A stretch of DNA of 48,713 nucleotides from Candidatus Gastranaerophilales bacterium. GTDB taxonomy: Bacteria; Cyanobacteriota; Vampirovibrionia; Gastranaerophilales; Gastranaerophilaceae. Location: positions 1 through 48,713 of the forward strand of contig CALVAS010000004.1 in assembly GCA_944325585.1 (NCBI GenBank), in the 5' to 3' direction. The notes below the pieces were generated by a model. The model saw nothing but the letters and a program-made list of their open reading frames with translations, was not told the DNA's origin and did no database searches. The first letter of the stretch is position 1, and every line of letters starts with the position of its first letter. Of the stretch, positions 17,054 through 19,241 are shown one piece after another. The position numbers and the translations under genes were made by a program.

Positions 17054-17869
17054 ATGGCTATAGAAAGTGTCAAAAAAACAAATAAGCAGGATTTAATTTT
17101 TTCCGCAGGCGCCGGCGTATGCGGCGGGCTTTTGTCTGCATCAGCGGGGGCATACAAGTTTTTTCAGAACGGAATCCCCTCGGATGTTTTTGTCAAGCAG
17201 GTGGAAAAAAATATTATAAATAAAACAGACAGGGAATCTGTTAAAACTATAAAAGCATTTCAGGAATACGAAAAAAATCTTGATAAAGCAAAATCTTTGG
17301 GGGATTTTGTTGATGCAAGTATTAATTTGAATTTAAAATATTACGATACATCTGATTTTACGGTTTTAAAAAGTATTGTTAAGCATAATTTGGTGCACGG
17401 AGAAGGGTTTAGCGAATCAGTTGTGCAAAATCCGAATTTGATGCTGGATTATCTTTTGGATATTAAAGGCTGCGAAAATATAGGCGAATTAAAGAATGTA
17501 ATGACTTCACAGTTAGATAAAACCTATCCCGGTTGGTCAATTGAACAAATAAGAGACAGCTTGAAAGCTGATTTAAACCATACAAAGCAGCAGCTGAATA
17601 TAGTTCATTTTGATGATGTTGCAAAAGCTGCGATTGGTTGTGCTTATGATGTCAAAAAAGAGAAATTTGTTTTTAATAAAGAAAATATTACAAAAGAAAT
17701 GTTTGATATTGTAAAAGGCACTGCGGAGAAGATGCAGTTTAAATCTGCTGCATTATATGGAGCCGTGGGAACTTTAATTGTCGGCGGTGCGACTTATTTG
17801 ATAATAAAACTCAGCGATTTATGCAGGGGAATTAAAAAAAGTAAAGTTCAAACTGACAAGAAGGTTTGA
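17054..17869 (+). CDS. Hypothetical membrane protein with hydrophobic segments at both ends
   Basis: The 271-residue protein has a glycine-rich N-terminal hydrophobic stretch (residues 15-38, LIFSAGAGVCGGLLSASAGA), a long polar, helical middle without a recognised motif, and a C-terminal transmembrane helix (AALYGAVGTLIVGGATYLII, about 233-256) ending in a basic tail. Architecture and composition resemble the 232- and 554-residue hypotheticals elsewhere in this window, suggesting a loose lineage family of helical, membrane-tethered proteins. There is only a weak ribosome binding site (AGGTAG), in keeping with the very short predicted leader. Function unknown. Confidence 0.65.
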   Translation: MAIESVKKTNKQDLIFSAGAGVCGGLLSASAGAYKFFQNGIPSDVFVKQVEKNIINKTDRESVKTIKAFQEYEKNLDKAKSLGDFVDASINLNLKYYDTSDFTVLKSIVKHNLVHGEGFSESVVQNPNLMLDYLLDIKGCENIGELKNVMTSQLDKTYPGWSIEQIRDSLKADLNHTKQQLNIVHFDDVAKAAIGCAYDVKKEKFVFNKENITKEMFDIVKGTAEKMQFKSAALYGAVGTLIVGGATYLIIKLSDLCRGIKKSKVQTDKKV

Positions 17870-17931
17870 AGGAAAAAAAAATTAATAAAGTTGCAGAAAA
17901 TTTAAAAATGTTACGTTTTGTAAATACTGAT

Positions 17932-18068: not shown

Positions 18069-18101
18069 GCATCTTGTGTGCGCTATGAAAGGAGTAAAGC
18101 T

Positions 18102-19205
18102 ATGCCAATTGATCCCACAACAAACTTATCTAACGGTATGGATGTAAAAACTGTCGGAACAGGTGCTTCGCAGAAAAAACAGTCTATTGCCGAAACTGTA
18201 ATTAATTTTTTAAGCGCAGATACCGAAGCAGAAAAAGATTATCCGGGGCTCGGAATTGAAAAATCAGAAGGCAAAAACTCTGATATTACAAAAATAGCGG
18301 CGCGGGAACTGGAGGATTTAAACAGAGCCGTTGAGCGTCAGGAGAGAAAGATTGAAAGAGCTGAACGAAGAATGGAAAAATACGGTTCACAAAGAGTTTC
18401 AGCATTCGGTTATCAAAAGATGAAAGAAGAATTGGCTGAATTAAAGGCTGACCGCGACAATCTTGCAAAAGGCGAAAATGTTGAAGAAATTCTGGAAAAA
18501 TATGCGCCGAAATCTATGGAAAGACTTGAGAAAAAAGAGACGCGTCCGATTAGACGGGAACTTAATAAAATAGAATCTCAAATTCAGAAAAAGACATCAC
18601 AACTTTATCAAACCCGCGATTTTGGCGAAGATTCAGAAAGTGCAAAATTAAAAGCCGAATTAAGTGAATTGAATGCGAAGAAAGCTGAATTAAATGCACG
18701 GTTAAACAACACTGTTGATACGCCGGCTGAAACCGCCGCGGCTGATACCCAAGCAAATGCCGGAAAACCAAGAGTTTCAACTGCCAATCCAGAAGAAGTG
18801 AATGAGATTTGTGACGATATGTTTAAAGCAATTGACGGGCTTGGAACAGATGATGAACTGTTTGAAAAGACACTTTCCCGTCTCAACAAGGATAACATAA
18901 TTGAAGTTATGGATCAGTGGAATAAAACTTACGGCAAAGATTACAATGAAACTTTTATGGATTCTTTTTTAGGTGATGCTGATCAAAAACAGAAGACAGA
19001 ATTCGGTACAAAAATTATTGATATGCTTGAAGAAAGAGCAAAGGAAAGCGGGCTGGATTTTGCAGGGAAATCGGCATCTTTAACAATGGAATTAAAACGT
19101 GATTTGGCGCCGAATTTAAAGAGACTCGAAAGCGAAAATCTTATAGGATATAATGTTGCACAAATGTTCGGTGAGATTAAAGCTAAAGAAAATCCGAATT
19201 TATAA
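18102..19205 (+). CDS. Coiled-coil protein with one C-terminal annexin-like repeat
   Basis: I start at the ATG at 18102 (AGGAG 7 nt upstream) rather than the GTG at 18078, which gives 367 residues. Residues about 60-205 are charged coiled coil (ERQERKIERAERRMEKYGSQ; KLKAELSELNAKKAELNARL). After an Ala/Thr-rich linker, residues about 235-305 contain AIDGLGTDDELFEKTLSRLN, then WNKTYGKDYNETF and FLGD. These line up gap-free with an annexin repeat: GLGTD, hydrophobic spacing, Y-G-K-D at 28-31 and G at 42 after the GxGT threonine. The usual distal Glu of the calcium site is Ser, with Asp just before it. No signal peptide is seen. Monocistronic with its own promoter and terminator. Possible role: calcium-dependent membrane binding (inference). 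Confidence 0.7.
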   Translation: MPIDPTTNLSNGMDVKTVGTGASQKKQSIAETVINFLSADTEAEKDYPGLGIEKSEGKNSDITKIAARELEDLNRAVERQERKIERAERRMEKYGSQRVSAFGYQKMKEELAELKADRDNLAKGENVEEILEKYAPKSMERLEKKETRPIRRELNKIESQIQKKTSQLYQTRDFGEDSESAKLKAELSELNAKKAELNARLNNTVDTPAETAAADTQANAGKPRVSTANPEEVNEICDDMFKAIDGLGTDDELFEKTLSRLNKDNIIEVMDQWNKTYGKDYNETFMDSFLGDADQKQKTEFGTKIIDMLEERAKESGLDFAGKSASLTMELKRDLAPNLKRLESENLIGYNVAQMFGEIKAKENPNL

Positions 19206-19209
19206 CAAC

Positions 19210-19241
19210 AAAAAAGCGGGATTTTAATCCCGCTTTTTTTA
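19210..19241. terminator. Rho-independent terminator
   Basis: AAAAAGCGGGATT/AATCCCGCTTTTT hairpin with flanking A and T runs. It lies between the convergent annexin-like gene and the last exbD gene and can serve both. Confidence 0.85.

What the first reader, a model, noticed from the sequence alone, without database searches (positions are those of the whole stretch)
18800..19010. Annexin-type repeat at the end of a bacterial coiled-coil protein
GLGTDDELF...YGKD...FLGD aligns with a human annexin A5 repeat without a gap: G-x-G-T-D, hydrophobic positions, (F/Y)-G-(K/R)-D at 28-31 and Gly at 42 after the Thr. The calcium-ligand Glu at 39 is Ser here, with Asp at 38. Annexins are mostly eukaryotic, usually with four repeats; a single repeat on a coiled coil is unusual and could dimerise to bind membranes.
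Basis: partly seen in the sequence, partly recalled or inferred. Interest (0 to 1): 0.7.

Follow-up and report, generated by a model that had tools for sequence, protein, structure and literature searches.

The report
Single annexin repeat in gut bacteria
A gene of a non-photosynthetic gut relative of cyanobacteria ends in one genuine annexin-type repeat (the calcium-dependent membrane-binding module known mainly from animals and plants), and many related species carry a whole family of such proteins, one of them, in this same genome, joined to a calpain-like protease.

Summary
The repeat is real. The ORF (ATG 18102, stop 19205, 367 aa) ends in a domain whose family profile matches annexins first in the PDB, aligns with undisputed annexin repeats of the same bacterial family far above shuffled controls, and folds (AlphaFold2, pLDDT 92) into the five-helix annexin repeat; the 50 best structural matches are annexin chains (best Z 11.1, 84 residues, 2.0 Å). 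Alone, the protein stays below Pfam's annexin cut-off (17.6-19 against 25 bits), but three family members pass it. It has one repeat, not four. One correction: the calcium-ligand acid is probably not lost. A short insert shifts the register; Asp292 of FLGDAD takes the place, and that column is acidic in 75 of 77 relatives. The family occurs in 197 of 382 genomes sampled from the class, almost all in one family. A paralogue in this genome joins an annexin repeat to a calpain-like core. Bacterial annexins, single-repeat ones included, are published, so this is a new variant of a known kind. Calcium and membrane binding, oligomerisation and export are inferred, not shown.

The parts
18102..19205 (+). 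whole gene, 367 aa: N-terminal stretch, charged helical (probable coiled-coil) region, linker, annexin-type repeat, two C-terminal helices
   Evidence: ORF; start by agreement with orthologues L001, L002 and AAGGAG upstream; conserved locus between ftsH/up271 and tolR in L001 and L002 and beside tolR in L003
17931..17959 (+). promoter-like site (TTTGCA-17-TATAAT), consistent with the gene having its own promoter
   Evidence: consensus match only; number of such matches not above shuffles
18282..18716 (+). charged helical region with heptad periodicity, aa 61-205, probable coiled coil
   Evidence: 43% charged; 3 of 500 shuffles reach the best heptad score
18789..19046 (+). annexin-type repeat, aa 230-315, helices A-E
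   Evidence: AlphaFold2 pLDDT 92; VIA-align top 50 all annexin chains, Z up to 11.1; profile searches
18837..18851 (+). GLGTD, type II calcium-binding A/B loop
   Evidence: G and T kept in 75 and 70 of 80 aligned members
18927..18953 (+). insert region between helices C and D (TYGKDYNET) that shifts the register against annexin A5
   Evidence: profile-profile gap KDYN; relatives L027 and L033 lack most of it
18975..18977 (+). Asp292, last residue of helix D, proposed bidentate calcium ligand
   Evidence: aligned with the Asp of GDFSG in true annexin repeats; D or E in 75 of 77; end of helix D in the model
19062..19190 (+). two extra C-terminal helices, aa 321-363, beyond the annexin repeat
   Evidence: AlphaFold2; region shared by most family members
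19210..19239 (.). bidirectional terminator-like hairpin between this gene and the convergent tolR gene
   Evidence: 13-pair stem with T tails on both strands

Best explanation
The C-terminal domain is a true, diverged annexin repeat: five helices (A-E) with a type II calcium loop GLGT and an acidic ligand at the end of helix D. Shown by computation: the fold and the homology. Inferred: a calcium ion held by the GLGT loop carbonyls and Asp292 bridges to acidic phospholipid head groups. One repeat should bind weakly, so the charged helical region is expected to oligomerise the protein and give the avidity that four tandem repeats give eukaryotic annexins. The result would be a calcium-dependent peripheral membrane scaffold. 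Relatives use the same repeat next to calpain-like and other effector-like domains, probably as a membrane-attachment module. Whether the window protein acts inside the cell or is exported is open. Confidence by step: annexin homology about 0.95, calcium binding about 0.6, membrane binding about 0.5. The number given here is for the whole statement.
For: Profile of 26 relatives against the PDB: annexins fill the top of the list (E 3.6e-17, summed over repeats), ahead of any other fold. Profile-profile with 15 annexin repeats from Gastranaerophilales genomes E 2.7e-13, score 75.6 against a shuffle maximum of 21.5; with vertebrate repeats 50.2 against 22.6; with the GLGTD motif blanked still 47.5 against the bacterial repeats. 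AlphaFold2 pLDDT 91.8, pTM 0.87; VIA-align Z 11.1 over 84 residues at 2.0 Å to annexin A8 and 1.5 Å over 75 residues to an annexin A2 fusion chain, all 50 rows annexin chains. Family members L044, L045, L047 exceed Pfam's annexin cut-off and match our family profile. Calcium-site residues conserved: GT plus D/E in 67 of 80.
Against: The protein alone is below Pfam's cut-off (17.6-19 against 25 bits). Foldseek's own E-values are weak (0.23), though ranks 1-30 are all annexins. Single-repeat matches in the PDB search are not significant one by one (best 0.12 in the alignments shown). Against vertebrate repeats the signal falls to the shuffle ceiling when the motif is blanked (22.3). A Z of 11 alone would not be conclusive for a helical domain; it counts because all listed rows are annexin chains. 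Nothing here measures calcium or lipid binding, oligomerisation or location.
Confidence: 0.5

Rival explanations
1. The repeat keeps the annexin fold but works as a protein-protein adaptor or structural module, without calcium or lipid.
For: Extra C-terminal helices and long helical partner regions in most members; several members lose T or D of GTD; a short insert next to the calcium site.
Against: GT plus acidic ligand kept in 67 of 80 members, including divergent ones; the acidic column is far more conserved than the Ser288 column.
Confidence: 0.28
2. The protein is an exported effector, delivered by the type III-like export apparatus found in these genomes, and the annexin repeat docks it on target-cell membranes.
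For: Paralogues carry effector-like domains: a calpain core in this genome, and RHS, EF-hand, LysM, FHA and, by eye only, an ADP-ribosyltransferase-like end in other family proteins. A type III export gate is in 324 of 382 genomes of the class. Published single annexin domains precede toxin domains in polymorphic toxins (PMC3482391).
Against: The window protein has no enzymatic domain and its annexin repeat is at the C-terminus, not before a toxin domain. No export signal was tested. The export gate is nearly universal in the clade, so co-occurrence says little. Its locus is a stable chromosomal one next to housekeeping genes.
Confidence: 0.15
3. Chance or convergent resemblance: an unrelated helical domain that happens to carry a GLGTD loop.
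For: Below the Pfam cut-off on its own; the short motif dominates the match to vertebrate repeats.
Against: Shuffle controls, motif-blanked control against bacterial repeats, intermediates above the Pfam cut-off, and the predicted fold.
Confidence: 0.03

Closest known systems
Eukaryotic annexins (Pfam PF00191; e.g. annexin A4, A6, A8)
   Same: Five-helix repeat, GxGT calcium loop, acidic residue at the end of helix D
   Different: One repeat instead of four or eight; helical region in front, two extra helices behind; about 8-20% identity in structural alignments; below the Pfam cut-off
Bacterial annexins of Kodavali et al. 2014 (PMC3894181), including the single-domain annexin of Cytophaga hutchinsonii
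   Same: Bacterial, single or few repeats, GxGTD loop, varied partner domains
   Different: That survey listed 17 species from Bacteroidetes/Chlorobi, Gemmatimonadetes, beta- and delta-Proteobacteria and Actinobacteria, with no Cyanobacteria; here a clade-wide, many-copy family
Annexin domains in polymorphic toxins delivered by PVC-type systems (Zhang et al. 2012, PMC3482391)
   Same: Single annexin domain in a bacterial protein; paralogues here are joined to protease-like domains
   Different: There the annexin domain is always followed by an enzymatic toxin domain; the window protein has none
Multi-repeat annexins in the same bacterial family (L038/L107: four repeats, 187 bits)
   Same: Same repeat, best profile match
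   Different: Four repeats, well above the Pfam cut-off, no insert before helix D

Membership tests
Annexin repeat / PF00191 | Five-helix annexin fold | tested here: met
   AlphaFold2 pLDDT 91.8; 50 of 50 VIA-align rows annexin chains, best Z 11.1, 84 aa, 2.0 Å
Annexin repeat / PF00191 | Homology to annexin repeats by profile comparison | tested here: met
   hhalign E 2.7e-13 and 7e-9 with shuffle, reversal and motif-blanked controls; PDB profile search
Annexin repeat / PF00191 | Score of this protein on its own above the curated Pfam cut-off | tested here: not met
   17.6-19 bits against 25; three other members of its family pass with 27.3-28.8 bits. This is a reporting threshold, so homology is claimed on the other tests
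Annexin repeat / PF00191 | GxGT type II calcium loop | tested here: met
   GLGTDD at aa 246-251; GT conserved in the family
Annexin repeat / PF00191 | Acidic ligand at the end of helix D | tested here: met
   Asp292 by profile alignment and by its place in the model; acidic in 75 of 77. Coordinates of the site could not be inspected
Canonical annexin protein | Four (or eight) tandem repeats | tested here: not met
   One repeat in 367 aa
Canonical annexin protein | Calcium-dependent binding to acidic phospholipid | not testable with these tools
   needs purified protein
Annexin-bearing polymorphic toxin | Enzymatic toxin domain after the annexin domain | tested here: not met
   only two helices follow; no such Pfam match
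Calpain (Peptidase_C2), for the paralogue L098 only | Calpain protease core fold and Gln/Cys/His/Asn residues | tested here: met
   VIA-align Z 12.8, 213 residues, 3.7 Å to calpain-3; Q230, C235, H412, N430 invariant in five homologues; related protein L132 scores 22.9 bits for PF00648, cut-off 23.8. The model is of uneven confidence

The most novel reading that the evidence does not exclude
Gastranaerophilaceae, common gut bacteria, carry an expanded calcium toolkit of annexin, EF-hand and calpain modules fused in single proteins, exported through a non-flagellar type III-like apparatus to act on membranes of other cells; the coiled-coil single-repeat annexin of this window is one exported member.
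Probability: 0.15. Interest if true: 0.85.

Novelty: new variant of a known kind. Interest (0 to 1): 0.55.

Why it matters
Bacterial annexins were reported as rare and patchy (34 proteins in 17 species in 2014, PMC3894181). Here an annexin-repeat family is present in about half of the sampled genomes of one bacterial class and is almost confined to one family of gut bacteria, with single-repeat and four-repeat forms side by side. That gives a natural series for the open question of how the four-repeat annexin arose, and a compact single repeat on which minimal calcium-dependent membrane binding can be tested. The annexin-calpain fusion in the same genome brings together two calcium-linked families best known from eukaryotes.

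Tried and rejected
The PF00191 search of the own genome at the default threshold found nothing; at E 0.01 in a larger search the window's repeat appears with 20 bits. The Methanobrevibacter match L004 is spurious, a short overlap with a different protein. DUF5805 matched only the window protein, at E 0.0064 and below cut-off, and was dropped. Pfam found no protease domain in L098, L104 or L095; the calpain core was seen only by conserved residues and fold. Foldseek alone ranked galectins and a ComA peptidase for L098 without a significant E-value, and that model is uneven (mean pLDDT 69.5, the other four models 44-52), so the calpain reading rests on VIA-align, the four invariant residues and L132. 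No correlation between annexin family and type III export could be tested because the export gate is nearly universal. A tree of 65-residue repeats was not attempted because the signal is too short, so the origin (vertical descent, or transfer from or to eukaryotes) is not addressed. Literature searches found no paper that describes annexins in these bacteria.

Full report
The window is contig C4 of a 1.76 Mb genome. Its nearest named relatives are Candidatus Gastranaerophilales and Melainabacteria MAGs (L001-L003), so it belongs to the non-photosynthetic gut relatives of cyanobacteria.

Observation. The GLGTDD...YGKD...FLGD stretch is at the stated place, in an ORF on the + strand ending at 19205. 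The tool's GTG start at 18078 gives 375 aa; ATG 18102, preceded by AAGGAG and matching the orthologues L001 and L002, gives 367 aa. Numbering below uses the ATG. A promoter-like site lies at 17931 and a bidirectional terminator-like hairpin at 19210-19239, so the gene is probably transcribed alone. The gene sits between ftsH plus a fast-changing upstream gene and the convergent tolR-tolR-tolQ-tonB-like group; this order is kept in L001 and L002, and the tol side in L003. The gene names are assigned from sequence by knowledge of the families, not by a profile search.

Is it annexin? Pfam annexin is the best match of the domain with E 0.0015 but 19 bits against a cut-off of 25. phmmer of the domain against the PDB returns annexins at the top. 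A profile of 26 relatives gives annexins at the head of the list, best E 3.6e-17; this is a sum over repeats, and single repeats shown reach only 0.12, so controls were needed. hhalign of the family against 15 annexin repeats found in Gastranaerophilales genomes (from L038-L050) gives E 2.7e-13 and score 75.6; 200 column shuffles reach at most 21.5, the reversed profile 11.6. Against ten vertebrate repeats the score is 50.2 against 22.6. With the GLGTD motif blanked it is 47.5 for the bacterial repeats but 22.3 for the vertebrate ones. So the link to bacterial annexins does not depend on the motif, and those in turn align with vertebrate repeats at E 7.5e-22. Members L044, L045 and L047 of the family pass Pfam's cut-off on their own and match the family profile.

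Fold. AlphaFold2 on the alignment gives mean pLDDT 91.8 and pTM 0.87 with helices at aa 230-244 (A), 251-258 (B), 266-275 (C), 277-281, 285-292 (D), 295-315 (E), 321-332 and 339-363. Foldseek ranks 1-30 are annexins with weak E-values. VIA-align over those candidates lists 50 of 50 rows as annexins or annexin fusions, best Z 11.1 with 84 residues at 2.0 Å (1w3w, annexin A8), and 75 residues at 1.5 Å for an annexin A2 fusion chain. The last two helices are largely outside the match.

Calcium site. The profile alignment instead opens a gap at KDYN and pairs GD of FLGDAD with GD of GDFSG in the bacterial annexins, the position of the ligand acid. Relatives L027 and L033, which lack most of the insert, show the same register by eye: GESLMEAFMAD against GESLMDAIKGD of L038. 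In 80 aligned members the Asp292 column is D 51, E 24, other 2, gap 3; the Ser288 column is S 23, A 21, T 15 and others. In the model Asp292 is the last residue of helix D, where annexins carry the ligand (the annexin side from established knowledge).

Family. With the single protein as query 118 of 192 genomes of the order match; with the profile 197 of 382 genomes of the class match, nearly all in one family-level group, up to seven places per genome. In this genome there are five places at E below 1e-6. Architectures: helical or low-complexity N-terminus plus C-terminal repeat, like the window's (most of A1); four repeats behind an EF-hand-like segment (L038/L107, 187 bits for annexin; the EF-hand-like segment by motif only); LysM, FHA and EF-hand matches in proteins of 1100-2300 aa; annexin repeat followed by a papain-like region. 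For the last, the own-genome paralogue L098 (455 aa) has Gln230, Cys235, His412 and Asn430 invariant in five homologues; its model, uneven in confidence, matches calpain protease cores from residue 181 on with Z 12.8 over 213 residues, and annexins over about residues 37-123 with Z about 7. L132 from another genome scores 22.9 bits for Peptidase_C2, just under its cut-off.

Mechanism. Shown by computation: an annexin repeat, conserved calcium-site residues, purifying selection on the repeat (dN 0.08, dS 1.1). Inferred: calcium bridges the repeat to acidic phospholipid, and the helical region oligomerises the protein to give avidity. From established knowledge, eukaryotic annexins bind membranes through several such loops at once, which is why oligomerisation is proposed. 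Rivals are a calcium-independent adaptor and an exported effector; the second has support from paralogue architectures and from published annexin-bearing toxins, but the window protein has no toxin domain and a stable chromosomal locus.

Known or new. Single-domain and multi-domain bacterial annexins, some with toxin and metalloprotease domains, were described in 2012 and 2014 (PMC3482391, PMC3894181). The 2014 survey does not mention Cyanobacteria. The new part is the clade-wide family, the single-repeat form on a helical stalk, and the annexin-calpain fusion. Hence new variant of a known kind, interest 0.55.

Noticed in passing
L098:2783-4150 (own genome C16), also L104, L106, L103, L132: Annexin-type repeat fused to a calpain-like cysteine protease core; L106 has an EF-hand match above cut-off and L104's 936-aa protein an EF-hand-like motif at the N-terminus.
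   Followed up: partly
L117 (own genome C14:16000-33675): A type III export gate (FlhA/SctV-like, below both NCBIfam cut-offs) with FliF/SctJ-like and FliH/SctL-like genes. All twelve sampled genomes of the window's genus have one strong gate match of about 720 bits, whereas many other genera also have one of about 870 bits, so this genus may keep only a non-flagellar system. A 2013 paper noted a gut genome of this group lacking filament, hook-filament junction and L/P ring genes (PMC3787301).
   Followed up: partly
own genome C12:11190-12224 and C70:416-1495 (L115, L116): Two ORFs (491 and 593 aa) that match only the C-terminal part of the type III export gate family, as if it stood alone.
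   Followed up: no
L094:473-6178 (own genome C54): A 1901-aa protein with LysM and FHA matches, a divergent annexin-like stretch, and a C-terminal end that looks like an ADP-ribosyltransferase by eye; the last was not confirmed by a profile.
   Followed up: partly
L107:1470-3530 (G137): A four-repeat annexin (187 bits) in a bacterium of the same family, next to a related upstream gene and with an EF-hand-like N-terminal segment.
   Followed up: partly
L043 (G226, a 5.3 Mb genome of the same phylum): A single annexin match above the Pfam cut-off (31 bits) near the N-terminus of a protein with an ABC1-kinase-like region by eye; the genome is listed with 9% contamination.
   Followed up: no
window 17054-17869: The upstream gene (271 aa, hydrophobic stretches near both ends) is at the same place in two relatives but only 41% and 31% identical, far less than its neighbours (97% and 94% for FtsH).
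   Followed up: no
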